A stretch of DNA of 7,861 bases from Dehalococcoidales bacterium. Its GTDB lineage: Bacteria > Chloroflexota > Dehalococcoidia > Dehalococcoidales > UBA2162. The position numbers and the translations under genes were made by a program. Positions within the stretch are counted from its first letter, which is position 1. Each line of letters starts with the position of its first letter. Below the pieces are notes generated by a model that searched no databases, had not been told where the DNA came from, and was given only the letters and a program-made list of their open reading frames with translations. The DNA lies in assembly GCA_020343555.1 (NCBI GenBank), contig CP070800.1, positions 726,265 through 734,125 of the forward strand, written 5' to 3'. Shown here in pieces: positions 37-5,861 of the stretch.

Positions 37-1176
37 ATGAACTTTGAACTTGATGAAGAGCAAGTAATGCTGAAAACTTCAGCCCGTGATTTTCTCGAGA
101 AAGAGTGCCCTAAGGAACTGGTCAGAGAAATAATGGAAGACGAGGAGAAGGCGTATTCTCCCGAGCTCTGGAAGAAGATGGCTGGACTGGGATGGCTGGG
201 CCTGTCCTTCCCCGAGGAGTACGGTGGAGCCGATTTTTCTTTCTTGGACCTGGCGGTACTACTGGAGGAGTGCGGACGCGCCCTGGTTCCCGGTCCGCTG
301 GTTCCGACAGTCGTACATGTCGGGCATACTATTCTTGCTGCAGGCACCGAAGAACAGAAACAGGACATACTTCCCAGGATGATAAACGGCGAGTTGATAC
401 TTACGCTGGCTTTCCAGGAGGAAAATGGAAGTCTGGAAGCATCCGGTATGACGGTTAAAGCGGAAAAATCCGGTGACAACTATATCATCAACGGCACCAA
501 GCTGTTTGTACCGGATGCCCATATAGCCGATTATCTGCTCTGTATCACCAGGACAACCGACGGCGCGGACAAGGAAGAAGGAATCACCCTTTTTCTTGTA
601 GATTCGAAAGCAGACGGTGTCCAGGTGGAAATTCTCAAGACAATGACAGGGGAAAAGCTTTGCGAAGTTGTTTTCAATAACGTTTCAGTTCCAGCGAAAA
701 GCATAATAGGCGAAGTCGACAAGGGATGGCCGGTTGTTGTGAAGATGAAGCATGAAGCGGAGGTTGCCGAGGCAGCCTGGATGACAGGTGGAGCTCGCTG
801 GGCACTCGATACAACGATAGATTATGCCAAGGAGAGAATCGCCTTCGAGAGACCGATAGGCAGTTTCCAGGCAATACAGCATAAACTCGCCGAGATAGCA
901 CTCGAGGTTGAAGGCTCAACGTCAATAATATATTACGCAGCATGGACGATAATGGAGAACGCTCCGGATATTGCCATGGCTGCGTCGATGGCGAAGGCCT
1001 GGTGCGGTGAATCCTACAAGCGTGCTGTATTCGATGGTGTCCAGATTCATGGCGGTATCGGTTTTACCTGGGATCATGATATGCATCTCTACTTCAAGAG
1101 AGCCAAAGCATGTGAAGTGAATTTCGGTGATAGTGACTATCATCGTGAAAAAGTAGCAAAATTACTGGAAATCTAA
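37..1176 (+). CDS. Acyl-CoA dehydrogenase family flavoprotein
   Basis: A cytoplasmic FAD enzyme of the acyl-CoA dehydrogenase fold, expected to introduce an alpha,beta double bond into an acyl-CoA and pass electrons to ETF. The 379 residues match the family length. The N-terminal helical domain spans about 1-115 (GLSFPEEYGGAD near 55-66), the central beta domain about 120-215, and the C-terminal helical domain about 230-375 with YAKERIAFERPIGSFQAIQH (263-282) and QIHGGIGFTWDHD (336-348), both hallmark FAD/subunit-contact stretches. The start is supported by GAGGAG at 22-27, nine bases upstream. Oddities: the YEGT-type motif carrying the C-terminal catalytic Glu of MCAD-like enzymes is absent, the region reading VNFGDSDYHRE (361-371), and the usual Gly of the FGRPIG motif is Glu271. 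Glutamates at 240, 242 and 245 lie near the alternative catalytic position used by isovaleryl-CoA dehydrogenase, but I cannot align them securely. The GD..HRE tail resembles subunits of heteromeric FadE pairs, so this may be one half of an alpha2beta2 enzyme. It is first in a line of CoA-ester genes. Family certain; substrate and direction unknown (a CaiA-like reductase is possible). Confidence 0.93.
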   Translation: MNFELDEEQVMLKTSARDFLEKECPKELVREIMEDEEKAYSPELWKKMAGLGWLGLSFPEEYGGADFSFLDLAVLLEECGRALVPGPLVPTVVHVGHTILAAGTEEQKQDILPRMINGELILTLAFQEENGSLEASGMTVKAEKSGDNYIINGTKLFVPDAHIADYLLCITRTTDGADKEEGITLFLVDSKADGVQVEILKTMTGEKLCEVVFNNVSVPAKSIIGEVDKGWPVVVKMKHEAEVAEAAWMTGGARWALDTTIDYAKERIAFERPIGSFQAIQHKLAEIALEVEGSTSIIYYAAWTIMENAPDIAMAASMAKAWCGESYKRAVFDGVQIHGGIGFTWDHDMHLYFKRAKACEVNFGDSDYHREKVAKLLEI

Positions 1177-1392: not shown

Positions 1393-2157
1393 ATGCCGAT
1401 AGAATATGTTAAAGAAGGTCATGTAGCCACATTTACCATCAACAATCCGGAAGTGATGAATGCTCTGACTCCGACCCAGGTGGCGGAATGGACGGATGCG
1501 TTGATAGACTTTCGTGATGACAAGGATATGTGGGTGGGAATTGTGACTGGAGCCGGCGAAAGGGCTTTTTGCACAGGCTTAAATCTCAGGAGTGCCGGTC
1601 AGACAGCCAGTGGTGAAGCGAGGCCTATCCCAAAGGAAACACTCGTTCGAGGTCTCAAGCTGTACAAACCCCTCATCGCGGCTATTAATGGGTACGCTCT
1701 GGGCGGAGGTCTTGAAATAGCTCTTGCCTGTGATATCAGGATAGCTTCGGAAAATGCTCAACTGGGACTTACGGAAGTGACCTTGGGCCTGCTGCCTGGC
1801 TGGGGAGGTACTCAAAGATTACCGCGTCTCGTTCCATTCAGTGTGGCTGCGGAGATGATGATAATGGGCAGGCGAGTGAAAGCCGATGAAGCTCTTGCGA
1901 TAAGGCTTGTACATGAAGTGGTACCGCTGGAAAATCTGATGGAAGCAGCCAGAGTGCGTGCCGAGAAGATAGCCGAATCGGCACCTCTTGCGGTACAGGG
2001 CGTCAAAGAGGCTATGCTAAGAGGTATTGAAATGACCCTGGAGGATGGTCTCGCTCTCGAAAGTGAACTGGGCCGGAGAGTAAATTCCTCTAAAGATTTT
2101 GCCGAAGGAATGAAGGCTTTCGCGGAAAAAAGGAAACCGAATTATACAGGTGAATAA
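1393..2157 (+). CDS. Enoyl-CoA hydratase/isomerase (crotonase) family protein
   Basis: A crotonase-fold enzyme of 254 residues, normal family length, expected to hydrate a 2-enoyl-CoA to the 3-hydroxyacyl-CoA in the cytoplasm, probably as a trimer or hexamer. The oxyanion-hole strands are visible: AFCTGLNL at 58-65 (the common Asp of the AGADL motif is Asn64) and NGYALGGGLEIALACD at 99-114. Both catalytic glutamates of rat mitochondrial hydratase (Glu144 and Glu164) have counterparts here, Glu108 in GGGLE and Glu128 in GLTEVTLGLLPGWGGTQRL, so hydratase activity is more likely than isomerase or hydrolase. ATG 1393 has AGGAG at 1380-1384, eight bases away. The SDR gene follows after 35 bases, so the two are surely co-transcribed. 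The upstream gap of 216 bases carries its own promoter candidate. A CaiD-like or BbsH-like role is possible; the substrate is not readable. Confidence 0.93.
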   Translation: MPIEYVKEGHVATFTINNPEVMNALTPTQVAEWTDALIDFRDDKDMWVGIVTGAGERAFCTGLNLRSAGQTASGEARPIPKETLVRGLKLYKPLIAAINGYALGGGLEIALACDIRIASENAQLGLTEVTLGLLPGWGGTQRLPRLVPFSVAAEMMIMGRRVKADEALAIRLVHEVVPLENLMEAARVRAEKIAESAPLAVQGVKEAMLRGIEMTLEDGLALESELGRRVNSSKDFAEGMKAFAEKRKPNYTGE

Positions 2158-2192: not shown

Positions 2193-2957
2193 ATGGATTA
2201 TGGATTAAAAGGCAGGAATGCAGTAGTCACAGGTACCGGACGCCAGGGAGCGATGGGACATACTATTGCTAAAACTCTGGCCGGTGAAGGCGCGAATATC
2301 GCCTGTGTCGACGTCAATATCGAGGGTGCCGAAGCGATCGCTGAGGAACTCCGGGGAATGGGAGTTAACGCCAAAGCCTACAATATTGACCAGAGCGAAT
2401 ACGAGCAGGTTCAAGAAGGAGCAGCAAAGATACTGGCCGAGATGGGGCCGGTTGATATACTGGTCAATAACGCAGCTCTTCTTCGTGGCGGTGGACGTAT
2501 CCAGAAAACGTCCGTCGAAGACTGGAAAAACCTTTTGAAGATCGATCTGGACGGCCCATGGTACTGGATAAGGGAACTCTGGGACCAGATGGTTGAACGA
2601 GAGTATGGACGCATTGTTAATATATCCTCTATTGCCGGCGTCCAGGGTGGTTTCGGCCAAGCTAACTACTCGGCCGCTAAAGCCGGTGTTGTCGCACTGG
2701 CAAAAACAGCCGCACTTGAAGGTGCCAGGCATGGCATCACTGCCAATACCGTAACTCTTGGCGTAGTCGATACCAGTGGAGGAAGAATACTTGAATCCGA
2801 AACCTTCCAGCGGATCGTAGCGCAGGTAGCCATGCGGAAAATGGGAGAGCCGATTGATGTAGCGACCCTCATAGCGTTCCTGGTTTCTGAACAGTGCAAA
2901 TACATAACCGGTCAGAACATACATGTAATGGGCGGTCTCGACCTGTTCACATATTAA
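2193..2957 (+). CDS. Short-chain dehydrogenase/reductase (SDR), probable 3-hydroxyacyl-CoA dehydrogenase
   Basis: A classical SDR of 254 residues with a Rossmann fold. The nucleotide-binding loop reads TGTGRQGAMG (13-22), longer than the usual TGxxxGxG. Asp40 at the end of the second strand predicts NAD(H) rather than NADP(H). NNAA is at 92-95; Ser145 or Ser146 in NISS, Tyr159 and Lys163 (YSAAK) complete the catalytic triad. The fourth tetrad residue, normally Asn in the vNLxG motif, is Asp118 (KIDLDG). In this context it most likely oxidises the 3-hydroxyacyl-CoA made by the hydratase next door, the role played by BbsC/BbsD in benzylsuccinate oxidation; a steroid or other alcohol dehydrogenase is the alternative. 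GAAGG at 2180-2184 sets the start at 2193; an ATG at 2188 is in another frame. The gene is followed by two strong stem-loops. Confidence 0.93.
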   Translation: MDYGLKGRNAVVTGTGRQGAMGHTIAKTLAGEGANIACVDVNIEGAEAIAEELRGMGVNAKAYNIDQSEYEQVQEGAAKILAEMGPVDILVNNAALLRGGGRIQKTSVEDWKNLLKIDLDGPWYWIRELWDQMVEREYGRIVNISSIAGVQGGFGQANYSAAKAGVVALAKTAALEGARHGITANTVTLGVVDTSGGRILESETFQRIVAQVAMRKMGEPIDVATLIAFLVSEQCKYITGQNIHVMGGLDLFTY

Positions 2958-2973
2958 AACAGAAAAAGATGAT

Positions 2974-3006
2974 AATAGCTGCGGAATAAAATACTCCGCA
3001 GCTATT
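2974..3006 (+). terminator. Strong 12-bp stem-loop after the SDR gene
   Basis: AATAGCTGCGGA (2974-2985) and TCCGCAGCTATT (2995-3006) are exact reverse complements around a 9-base A/T-rich loop. It begins 16 bases after the SDR stop. Only TTT follows the G/C-rich part of the stem before TCACGG, so termination would be partial at best; a 3'-end stabiliser or an intercistronic processing hairpin fits as well. Confidence 0.55.
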
Positions 3007-3009
3007 TCA

Positions 3010-3057
3010 CGGTATATGATTTTCGGTGATGTGCAATCACCTGGATTTCATATACCG
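3010..3057 (+). promoter_or_regulatory. Two-tier 48-base stem-loop upstream of the first CoA-transferase
   Basis: The outer stem CGGTATATGA (3010-3019) pairs with TCATATACCG (3048-3057), 10 bp and perfect. Inside it GGTGAT (3025-3030) pairs with ATCACC (3036-3041) around a 5-base loop, with a small internal loop between the stems. It starts three bases after the preceding hairpin and ends 58 bases before the start codon at 3116. No T run follows, so it looks like a structured leader or a protein-binding palindrome rather than a simple terminator. Confidence 0.5.
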
Positions 3058-3115: not shown

Positions 3116-4363
3116 ATGGCAGAGGAAGACAATGTTTCAGGCATGCTGAGTCCTTACCGGATTCTGGATCTGACCGATGAGAAGGGATTTCTCTGTGGGA
3201 AGATGCTCGGAGATCTCGGGGCAGACATAATAAAAATAGAAAAGCCGGATGGAGATTCCTCGCGGAACATCGGTCCGTATTACCACGATGAGATCGATCC
3301 TGAGAAAAGCCTTTACTGGTTTTCCTATAACGCAAACAAGCGTGGAATCACCCTGGATATCGAGAATCCTCAAGGCAAAGATATATTCAAAGAGCTGGTA
3401 AAAACCGCAGACGTAGTAGTCGAATCATTTCCTCCCGGTTATATGAATGAACTCGGACTCGGATACGAGGAACTGGAGAAGATAAATAAAGAAATAATCC
3501 TGACATCTATCACTCCATATGGCCAGACCGGACCTTACAGGGACTTCAAATACTCCGATATCACTCTCTATGCTATGGGAGGATATATGTCTTCCGTCGG
3601 AGATGCGGACAGACCACCCGTTCGGATAAGCCATCATTTTCAGACGTATCTCCATGGTGGTGGTCAAGCCGCTCAGGGTGTACTGTTCTCCCTTTACCAT
3701 CGTGAGATGACAGGTGAAGGCCAGTACATCGATGTCTCGATCCACGACTCAACCTCGAGAATCACTCCGGAAAGAGTGACGGCGTTCTGGGATTTCAGTA
3801 AAAGAATCCAGCACCGCGGTGGAGGAAGGGCAATTTTAGGACGGATATGGGAATGTAAGGACGGATACGTGTATGCGATGTACTGGGGAGGTACTGCAGG
3901 TAAGCGATGGAATGGTCCAATCGTAAAGTGGATGGAGAGCGAAGGAGTTGCCACCGACTTTATTAAAGAGTTTAACTGGGAAGAATTGAATTTGATGCAT
4001 ACCTCACCGGAAATTTTAAGGAAAATTGCCGAACCGACACGGGAACTTTTCATGCGGCATACCAAGGCGGAGCTGCTGGAAGCCGCGCTTGAACATAATG
4101 CCCAGGTCTATCCTCTCAACAGTACCGCTGAGATAGCCGGTAATCGACAACTTGCGGCAAGGGATTACTGGGTCAAGCTGGATCAACCCGAACTGGGAAC
4201 TACGATAACCTACCCCGGATCTTTTGCCAAGACAACAGAAGCGCCCCCACGCGTGACACGACGTGCTCCGCTTGTCGGCGAACACAACGAAGAAATTTAT
4301 ATTGATGAATTGAGATATTCGGAAGAAAAGCTCCAAGAACTGAAACGGGACGGAATCATTTAA
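3116..4363 (+). CDS. Family III (CaiB/BaiF) CoA-transferase, subunit lacking the catalytic Asp
   Basis: A 415-residue member of the formyl-CoA transferase/CaiB family, which moves CoA between carboxylic acids as interlocked dimers. The N-terminal Rossmann-like part has YRILDLTDEKGFLCGKMLGDLGADIIKIEKP split across 14-44; further marks are GQTGP (136-140), REMTGEGQYIDVSI (196-209) and the C-terminal PLVGEHNEEI (385-394). The small domain is about 225-350. The catalytic Asp (Asp169 in formyl-CoA transferase) should lie 18 residues before the conserved Arg196; here that position is Tyr178, and residues 166-196 contain no Asp or Glu at all. The protein alone is therefore unlikely to follow the usual anhydride mechanism, and it probably pairs with the neighbouring transferase 25 bases downstream, as two different subunits do in BbsEF. 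The start at 3116 has AAGGGAG about eight bases upstream and a normal family N-terminus; a GTG at 3026 would add 30 residues but lies inside a stem-loop and has no ribosome site. Confidence 0.9.
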   Translation: MAEEDNVSGMLSPYRILDLTDEKGFLCGKMLGDLGADIIKIEKPDGDSSRNIGPYYHDEIDPEKSLYWFSYNANKRGITLDIENPQGKDIFKELVKTADVVVESFPPGYMNELGLGYEELEKINKEIILTSITPYGQTGPYRDFKYSDITLYAMGGYMSSVGDADRPPVRISHHFQTYLHGGGQAAQGVLFSLYHREMTGEGQYIDVSIHDSTSRITPERVTAFWDFSKRIQHRGGGRAILGRIWECKDGYVYAMYWGGTAGKRWNGPIVKWMESEGVATDFIKEFNWEELNLMHTSPEILRKIAEPTRELFMRHTKAELLEAALEHNAQVYPLNSTAEIAGNRQLAARDYWVKLDQPELGTTITYPGSFAKTTEAPPRVTRRAPLVGEHNEEIYIDELRYSEEKLQELKRDGII

Positions 4364-4388: not shown

Positions 4389-5861
4389 ATGCCGAAGAAG
4401 CTGTTAGATGGAGTGAAGATCTGTGATTTTTCACGGGTAATCGTCGGACCGTTGACGACCAAACCATTGTCAGATTACGGTGCCACGGTGGTCAGGATAG
4501 AAGGCAGGACAAATCTTGAAATATTCAGAACACAGGCAGCTGATCCCGACCTGGCAACGCAATTTACGCAGTGGAATACCGGGAAGTTAGGCGTAACCCT
4601 TAAACTTAATGATCCCAGAGGAAGAGACATAGCTTTGAAGATAGCTGCCTGGGCTGATATCGTGGTCGAAAACTTCGCCGGTGGCGTGATTGAAAAACTG
4701 AGTCTTGGATATGAAGAAATTAAAAAAGTAAATCCGAACGTGATAATGTTGAGTTCCTGCATGCAGGGCCAGACCGGACCGTTTTCCCGGCACCCGGGAT
4801 GGGGATTCCAGCTTTCGGCTCTTTCCGGTTTCAGCCATATCGCTGGCTGGCTGGATAGACCTCCGCCTGAACTCGGAGTGTATACCGATTTCATTACACC
4901 ACATTATAATGTCTGCCTTCTTCTGGGAGCACTGATATACCGAAAACGTACCGGAAAGGGTATGTATATCGATACCGCTCAATTCGAGACCGGTCTGCAC
5001 TTTATCTCGCCACTGATCCTGGATTATTTTGTAAACGACCGCAATGCCGAGAGAATGGGAAATCGTTCCGATACGGCGTCACCGCATAATGCCTTCCGTT
5101 GTAAAGATGAAGCAAGGTACTGCGTAATCAATATTTCCAATGATGAAGAATGGGAAAAATTCTGTGGAGTTCTGGAAAATCCGAAATGGACAAAAGAAGA
5201 GAGATTTAGTACTCAGGAATTGAGAGAAGCGAATAGAGAAGAACTCAGGAAACTGGTTGAACAGTGGACGGCTGACCTCTGGGTAGAAGAAGTGATAAAC
5301 AGGATGCAGCCTGTAACGATAACTGCTGAAAGGCTCCTAAATGATAACGACTCTCAGAAAGTTAATAATTCCTACCGCTGTAAGAATGAAGACAGGTGGT
5401 GTGCTATCGCTGTGACCACCGATGAAGAGTGGAGGAATTTTTGTGAAGCTATCGGTAATCCCGAATGGAAGAATGACCAGCGGTTCAGCACCCTCGCGGC
5501 AAGAAAAGCAAACGAGGACGAACTGGAGAGCCTGGTAGAGAAATGGACGACTCAACATTTGGCTTTCGATGTAATGAATATTATGCAGGATGCCGGTGTG
5601 CCTGCCGGAGTAGTAGAGACCGGAGAAGACCAGCTTGAACACGACCTACAGACCCGGCACAGGAATTTCTTCCAGGAACTCGACCATCCGAGACTCGGAA
5701 AACACCATGCTGCGGCTTCGCCATTTCAGATGTCGAAAGCGCCATGCGAACTCGAACGGGCACCGCTGCTGGGAGAACATAACGAGTATGTATTAAAAGA
5801 GATACTCGGGTTTACTGACGAAGAGATTATCGACCTGGTAGTGAATGGCATCCTTGAATAG
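4389..5861 (+). CDS. Family III (CaiB/BaiF) CoA-transferase with tandemly duplicated small domain
   Basis: A 490-residue CoA-transferase, about 90 longer than is usual for the family. The N-terminal domain starts LLDGVKICDFSRVIVGP (5-21), with TKPLSDYGATVVRIE at 24-38 and GQTGP at 127-131. Asp167 lies exactly 18 residues before the Arg of YRKRTGKG and so fits the catalytic aspartate that forms the aspartyl-CoA/anhydride intermediates. The extra length is explained by two copies of the small domain: residues 234-307 and 327-400 align without a gap at a spacing of 93, 35 of 74 identical, sharing RCK, DEEW, NP.W, RFST, AN..EL, LVE.WT and MQ. Only the second copy keeps the family's AGVPAGVV turn (402-409); in the first it has become PVTITAERLL. 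The C-terminus has PLLGEHNEYVL (459-469). AGGAG at 4377-4381 is seven bases before the start, and the gene lies 25 bases after its partner, so the two are translated from one mRNA. Probably the catalytic subunit of a heteromeric transferase; substrate unknown. Confidence 0.92.
   Translation: MPKKLLDGVKICDFSRVIVGPLTTKPLSDYGATVVRIEGRTNLEIFRTQAADPDLATQFTQWNTGKLGVTLKLNDPRGRDIALKIAAWADIVVENFAGGVIEKLSLGYEEIKKVNPNVIMLSSCMQGQTGPFSRHPGWGFQLSALSGFSHIAGWLDRPPPELGVYTDFITPHYNVCLLLGALIYRKRTGKGMYIDTAQFETGLHFISPLILDYFVNDRNAERMGNRSDTASPHNAFRCKDEARYCVINISNDEEWEKFCGVLENPKWTKEERFSTQELREANREELRKLVEQWTADLWVEEVINRMQPVTITAERLLNDNDSQKVNNSYRCKNEDRWCAIAVTTDEEWRNFCEAIGNPEWKNDQRFSTLAARKANEDELESLVEKWTTQHLAFDVMNIMQDAGVPAGVVETGEDQLEHDLQTRHRNFFQELDHPRLGKHHAAASPFQMSKAPCELERAPLLGEHNEYVLKEILGFTDEEIIDLVVNGILE
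5088..5309 (+). repeat. Intragenic tandem duplication, copy 1 (residues 234-307)
   Basis: First copy of the duplicated small-domain segment in the second CoA-transferase. It aligns in frame and without gaps to 5367-5588, offset 279 bases (93 codons); 35 of 74 encoded residues are identical. The DNA has drifted at many third positions, so the duplication is old rather than an assembly artefact. Confidence 0.9.
5367..5588 (+). repeat. Intragenic tandem duplication, copy 2 (residues 327-400)
   Basis: Second copy of the segment at 5088-5309. It runs on into the family's AGVPAGVV motif, so this copy looks closer to the ancestral single small domain. Shared anchor residues include R330/C331/K332, W348, F351, C352, N357/P358, W360, R365-T368, W386 and M399/Q400. 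Confidence 0.9.

What the first reader, a model, noticed from the sequence alone, without database searches (positions are those of the whole stretch)
5088..5588. Tandem duplication of the small domain in a family III CoA-transferase
Residues 234-307 and 327-400 of the second transferase align ungapped at a 93-residue period with 35/74 identities, which accounts for its ~490-residue length against the family's ~400. Copy 2 keeps the AGVPAGVV motif and copy 1 has lost it, suggesting one copy stayed in the old role while the other is free to diverge. In this family the small domain shapes the acyl-CoA pocket and the interlocked dimer, so an extra copy could enlarge the substrate site or bind the partner subunit. 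I do not know whether this architecture has been described.
Basis: seen in the sequence. Interest (0 to 1): 0.7.

Follow-up and report, generated by a model that had tools for sequence, protein, structure and literature searches.

The report
Doubled small domain in CoA-transferase subunit
An enzyme subunit that hands coenzyme A from one acid to another carries two copies of a domain of which most relatives have one; many bacterial relatives share the doubling, which probably sits on the half of the enzyme that does no chemistry.

Summary
The second transferase, T2 (4389-5861, 490 aa), repeats its family III CoA-transferase small domain in tandem at a 93-residue period (self-score 233, best of 500 shuffles 63). 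[quoted passage not shown] both fold alike in the model. It recurs: of 225 homologues fetched from three capped searches, 89 carry two copies, 136 one, none three. T2 keeps catalytic Asp167; its upstream neighbour T1 resembles the other subunit and lacks the Asp. In two published dimers the active site joins one subunit's large domain with the partner's small domain, so the doubled domain most likely faces T1's dead site, not the catalytic pocket. That step is inferred; no complex was modelled, and a conservation check was mixed. 'Free to diverge' is not supported: dN/dS is 0.07-0.11 in copy 1 (four pairs). How often the duplication arose is unresolved. Ten literature searches listed no description. 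A new variant of a known kind.

The parts
4389..5861 (+). T2: family III CoA-transferase, BbsF-like catalytic subunit, 490 aa, with two tandem small domains
   Evidence: ORF; PF02515 E 4.4e-110 in two stretches; best solved relative 9fn0_B, a subunit of BbsEF, E 2.9e-62; AlphaFold2 model mean pLDDT 87.4
4389..5045 (+). T2 large (Rossmann) domain, N-terminal part, residues 1-219
   Evidence: alignment with family members; model
4887..4889 (+). T2 catalytic Asp167 (YTDF)
   Evidence: aligns with Asp178 of 9fn0_B (from the alignment); the title of 9fol names a D178-CoA adduct; invariant in the 98-row alignment
5046..5324 (+). small domain copy 1, residues 220-312
5325..5603 (+). small domain copy 2, residues 313-405
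   Evidence: period-93 repeat; residues 315-419 match 9fn0_B 249-336, E 1.3e-11; holds most of the invariant small-domain residues
5592..5615 (+). exit-linker motif AGVPAGVV, residues 402-409, leading back to the large domain
   Evidence: sequence; conserved in single-domain relatives
5604..5861 (+). T2 large domain, C-terminal part, residues 406-490, and stop codon
   Evidence: alignment and model
3116..4363 (+). T1: BbsE-like partner subunit, 415 aa, one small domain, no catalytic Asp
   Evidence: PF02515 E 5.5e-76 in one stretch; best solved relative 9fn0_A, the other BbsEF subunit, E 7.9e-69 (read from the longer ORF start 3026); Thr at the Asp column; 25 nt upstream of T2
37..1176 (+). 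acyl-CoA dehydrogenase (context, beta-oxidation)
1393..2157 (+). enoyl-CoA hydratase/isomerase (context)
2193..2957 (+). short-chain dehydrogenase (context)

Best explanation
T2 is the catalytic (F-type) subunit of a two-subunit family III CoA-transferase built like BbsEF, and T1 is its Asp-less E-type partner. A tandem duplication of the small domain lengthened T2 from about 397 to 490 residues. The chain runs large domain (N part), small domain copy 1, small domain copy 2, large domain (C part). The CoA exchange proceeds on Asp167 of T2, in a pocket closed by T1's small domain. T2's own small-domain arm lies over T1's large domain, where there is no Asp, so it could be doubled without spoiling catalysis. 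The extra copy most likely serves as a docking or stabilising element on that non-catalytic side (or in higher-order assembly), and selection keeps both copies. Shown by computation: the duplication, the shared predicted fold, conservation of both copies, Asp in T2, its absence in T1, and the paired genes. Inferred: the heterodimer, which side the doubled arm faces, and its role.
Against: No complex was modelled and no coordinates were inspected, so which copy sits in the canonical place, and on which side, is not shown. The two structure papers concern other members of the family; the BbsEF arrangement itself was not seen. Across paralogues the conservation pattern runs against a simple form of the idea: E-type small domains are less alike (0.536 in 36 pairs of duplicated operons, 0.361 in 1176 single pairs) than F-type copy 2 or the F-type single domain (0.608 and 0.476), though copy 1 is lower still (0.523). 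That could mean substrate-specific change in the E domain, but it was not predicted. One of four orthologue-like pairs (L002-L006) shows T2's copies at least as conserved as T1's small domain. T1-T2 pairing is not specific to duplicated proteins.
Confidence: 0.5

Rival explanations
1. The second small domain reshapes or enlarges the catalytic acyl-CoA pocket and so changes substrate range.
For: Small domains do line the pocket in this family, and active-site loops are thought to set substrate choice in YfdE and FCOCT (PMC3720670 passages). Duplicated proteins form groups of their own on the large-domain tree, apart from P0020, as a change of substrate might give.
Against: In the two structures read about, the pocket at a given Asp uses the partner's small domain, and the partner T1 has one small domain. 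E-type rows lack the Asp (0 of 120 have it).
Confidence: 0.15
2. T2 works as a homodimer, so its small domains close its own active sites and T1 is a separate enzyme or regulator.
For: YfdE and mesaconyl-CoA transferase are dimers of one kind of chain (passages), and T2 has the Asp.
Against: T1 and T2 match the two different subunits of BbsEF best; the genes are 25 nt apart; 8 of 8 duplicated ORFs have the pair; long proteins that join an E-type and an F-type half exist, 80 of the 225 fetched homologues being over 700 aa (both halves examined in 62 of them).
Confidence: 0.1
3. The duplication is structurally tolerated and has become locked in, without a new function: both copies are needed only to hold the longer arm together.
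For: Both copies are under purifying selection, yet no residue common to copy 1 of both groups and rare elsewhere was found (thresholds 40% and 20%).
Against: Two-copy proteins recur and keep both copies over long divergence (89 of 225 fetched), while single-domain relatives of the same subfamily do without.
Confidence: 0.2

Closest known systems
BbsEF, succinyl-CoA:(R)-benzylsuccinate CoA-transferase (PDB 9fn0, 9fol, 9fun)
   Same: Best solved match of both proteins, T1 to chain A and T2 to chain B; catalytic Asp on one subunit, aligned with Asp178 of chain B; acyl-CoA dehydrogenase, hydratase and SDR genes nearby, the enzyme kinds of the bbs pathway (PMC10818641, passages)
   Different: 9fn0_B is 409 aa, and both T2 copies match one and the same part of it; T2 has 490 aa and two small domains. 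Substrate unknown here; no thiolase or glycyl-radical synthase among the seven window proteins scanned
Fused E-F proteins of about 820 aa (CaiB/BaiF proteins, several from Chloroflexota)
   Same: F-type half 47-55% identical to T2 over 62-70% of it in the listed rows; E half first, F half second
   Different: One chain, and a single small domain matched in the F half (63 of 63 over 780 aa; 80 of 80 over 700 aa)
Single-domain F-type subunits of 397-405 aa
   Same: 61-63% identical to T2 over aligned positions for the 397-401 aa rows; single-domain ORFs also mostly stand next to an E-type gene (55 of 65)
   Different: One small domain, corresponding best to copy 2
Human SUGCT (9br6, 9br7), YfdE, formyl-CoA transferase
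   Different: Chains of about 375-430 residues in the list, where T2 has 490

Membership tests
CoA-transferase family III (PF02515) | Match to the family profile above its curated cut-off | tested here: met
   368.7 bits against a cut-off of 23.3
CoA-transferase family III (PF02515) | Catalytic Asp that carries CoA | tested here: met
   Asp167 aligns with Asp178 of 9fn0_B; its chemistry here is not tested
CoA-transferase family III (PF02515) | Large Rossmann domain split in sequence around a small domain | tested here: met
CoA-transferase family III (PF02515) | Interlocked dimer | not testable with these tools
   No complex prediction available
BbsEF-type heterodimeric CoA-transferase | Two adjacent paralogous genes, each closest to one of the two BbsEF subunits | tested here: met
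   T1 to 9fn0_A, T2 to 9fn0_B; 25 nt apart
BbsEF-type heterodimeric CoA-transferase | Asp on F subunit only | tested here: met
   T2 Asp167, T1 Thr at that column
BbsEF-type heterodimeric CoA-transferase | F subunit with one small domain, about 410 aa (as in 9fn0_B; whether this defines the type is my judgement) | tested here: not met
   Two copies, 490 aa
Benzylsuccinate CoA-transferase (by substrate) | Activity with succinyl-CoA and benzylsuccinate | not testable with these tools
   Needs an enzyme assay
Benzylsuccinate CoA-transferase (by substrate) | Genes for the rest of the toluene pathway nearby (bbsG, bbsH, bbsCD, bbsAB, bss) | tested here: inconclusive
   Acyl-CoA dehydrogenase, hydratase and one SDR present, no thiolase or glycyl-radical synthase among the seven proteins scanned; the window is short and no whole genome is held

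The most novel reading that the evidence does not exclude
In asymmetric (E-F) family III CoA-transferases the catalytic subunit's small domain has been released from catalysis because it faces the partner's dead site. That allowed tandem duplication of the domain at least twice independently (490-503 aa and 503-532 aa groups, different unit lengths), and the extra domain has gained a new role there, such as binding a regulator, a second CoA or acyl ligand, or neighbouring beta-oxidation enzymes.
Probability: 0.2. Interest if true: 0.6.

Novelty: new variant of a known kind. Interest (0 to 1): 0.42.

Why it matters
Family III CoA-transferases are a large class, and some genomes here hold dozens of hits (54 matches, split hits included, in the genome of L001). 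A doubled small domain shows that the large-small layout is not fixed in the F-type subunit of E-F pairs, and gives a natural test of what that subunit's small domain is for. It also warns that length or Pfam labels hide the architecture: the 225 homologues fetched bear the same single label, PF02515.

Tried and rejected
Unrelated insertion: rejected, since each copy alone matches the same part of solved family members.

Assembly artefact: rejected, since the copies are only 139 of 222 identical as DNA, and many proteins from several sources share the layout.

Decaying copy 1: rejected on dN/dS. Both copies are nevertheless less constrained than the N-terminal large domain in all four pairs (0.019-0.055 there). 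In a fifth pair, the two L003 genes, dS could not be computed for three of the four regions.

Single or multiple origin of the duplication: not settled. On the large-domain tree one clade of all duplicated proteins is rejected (36 rows against 26, p-AU 1.7e-8; 62 rows chosen from the 126, the group being named after that tree had been seen); group A as one clade (p 0.43) and the longer proteins as one clade (p 0.68) are not rejected. On the small-domain tree (95 columns) all copy 1 rows fall together in the best tree with support 74, and separate origins are not rejected (p 0.45 and 0.15; 98 rows chosen from the 202, where copy 1 is also one side of a branch, support 40). Mean identities lean weakly to one origin in a four-point comparison worked by hand. 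P0020 (two copies) groups with single-domain proteins of 397-401 aa, so a loss is possible. No residue distinguishes both copy 1 groups from the other copies at the thresholds used.

Conservation test of which small domain lines the pocket: mixed (58 operons, 9 of them duplicated, after dropping pairs with an ORF of 380 aa or less), told under evidence against.

Frequency in genomes: 1 of 294 sampled genomes of the class of L001's genome had a match at E 1e-100 or better, and that one was L001's own genome; only the top 5 candidates per genome were scored. Four other duplicated genomes would pass that limit by their values, but a form like that of L005 (split hits, best 2.6e-64) would not, so the figure is rough.

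Triple copies: none among the 225 fetched proteins; each search listed only its best 120 of 3529, 6278 and 7444 hits.

Literature: ten counted searches gave no title or abstract start that described a small-domain duplication; two searches found no paper; most listed papers were not opened. Seen as passages only: PMC3720670, PMC9196870, PMC10818641, PMC5395668, PMC7285207. No paper on the BbsEF structure came up; only PDB entry titles were seen.

Plasmid records: 1188 records match T2, all under 60% identity, the 5 listed at 33-35%. Rfam: no match in the window at gathering threshold.

Full report
WHAT IS THERE. The window holds a run of genes on the plus strand: acyl-CoA dehydrogenase (37-1176), enoyl-CoA hydratase (1393-2157), short-chain dehydrogenase (2193-2957), two family III CoA-transferases (T1 3116-4363, T2 4389-5861), a methyltransferase and an MFS transporter. 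The T1 ORF can be read from a GTG at 3026, but an ATG at 3116 gives the usual length. The closest named relative of T2 among the genome loci is 91% identical, in a Dehalococcoidia MAG (L001, isolate W403), where relatives of the same seven genes stand in the same order, the first cut by the contig end. The source of the window itself is not known and no whole genome is held.

THE REPEAT. T2 residues 220-313 align with 313-406 at an offset of 93 with no gap (score 233; 500 shuffles reach at most 63). The 35 of 74 identities claimed are exact. T1 has no such repeat (best self-score 43). The core profile made from 40 single-domain homologues finds two domains in 74 of 74 proteins of 450-540 aa, the window's own included, one in 40 of 40 proteins of 390-410 aa, and one in 63 of 63 proteins over 780 aa. 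Seven of the 183 proteins fetched by then were left out of that count; one of them, P0152 (464 aa), would fall in the first class and has one copy. With all 225 fetched proteins counted, 89 have two copies, 136 one and none three. In the 450-555 aa class it is 88 of 90, the exceptions being P0152 and P0204; the 89th is a 381-aa protein, P0209. These are the best 120 rows of each of three searches, the first with T2, the last with a two-copy protein, so the share is not a frequency in nature.

KINDS AND HISTORY. Two-copy proteins come with periods of 93 (mostly 490 aa), 95 (491-502 aa), 104-106 (P0036-P0038, 503 aa) and 99-108 (503-532 aa). The 95-residue junction looks like the 106-residue one less a block of 11 residues (read by eye), which fits either a later deletion or separate breakpoints. 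The large-domain tree separates the 490-503 aa group from the longer group (p-AU 1.7e-8 against one clade), but the small-domain tree cannot exclude a single old duplication followed by losses. In group A copy 2 is closer to the single domains (mean identity 0.615) than copy 1 is (0.488); over the 74 proteins copy 2 has 18 positions at 95% conservation against 11 in copy 1, five of the 11 lying in the entry linker that most copies 2 lack. Copy 1 is nevertheless under purifying selection.

PARTNER. T1's best solved relative is 9fn0_A and T2's is 9fn0_B, the two subunits of BbsEF; which is E and which F is from recall, supported by source names of T2's relatives. T2 Asp167 corresponds to Asp178 of chain B; the title of 9fol names a D178-CoA adduct. 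At the same column 0 of 120 E-type sequences have Asp (8 partners of duplicated and 50 of single-domain proteins, all over 380 aa, and 62 first halves of proteins over 800 aa); 1 of 121, T1 included, has a D within two columns. All 8 duplicated ORFs in the 78 genome loci have the E-type gene directly upstream, as do 55 of 65 unfused single-domain ORFs; the other 10 were not examined further.

MECHANISM. [quoted passage not shown] With Asp on T2 only, the working site should be T2 large plus T1 small, and T2's doubled arm should face T1's Asp-less large domain. This would make the duplication easy to tolerate and argues against a larger catalytic pocket. It is an inference: no complex was modelled. 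A conservation check gave a mixed answer. T1's small domain is well conserved between orthologue-like pairs (0.90-0.93, above both T2 copies in 3 of 4 pairs, three of the pairs sharing the same loci). Across paralogues it is the most variable part in single-domain operons (0.361) and second only to copy 1 in duplicated ones (0.536 against 0.523).

VERDICT. A real and recurrent architecture within a well-known family, not found described in the searches made here; function of the extra domain unproved.

Noticed in passing
P0039-P0062 and others, over 700 aa: Natural fusions of E-type and F-type subunits into one chain of about 820 aa, with one small domain matched in the F half (80 of 80 fetched proteins over 700 aa); a ready single-chain model of the heterodimer.
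   Followed up: partly
L003:2921-8798: Two E-F pairs in tandem in one Dehalococcoidales genome, both F proteins with the doubled small domain.
   Followed up: no
L001, L010, L011, L015, L061 (contigs of isolate W403): One MAG carries duplicated, single-domain and fused forms of the same transferase subfamily together.
   Followed up: no
window 2974-3006: Inverted repeat of 15 pairs with a 3-base loop between the short-chain dehydrogenase and T1; scored as terminator-like on the minus strand (3 such sites found, 2.8 expected by shuffles).
   Followed up: no
P0020 (492 aa): A two-copy protein that groups with single-domain proteins of 397-401 aa on the large-domain tree, a possible case of loss by recombination between the repeats in its neighbours.
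   Followed up: partly
L005: A duplicated E-F pair in a record titled Deltaproteobacteria, so the form may not be confined to Chloroflexota.
   Followed up: no
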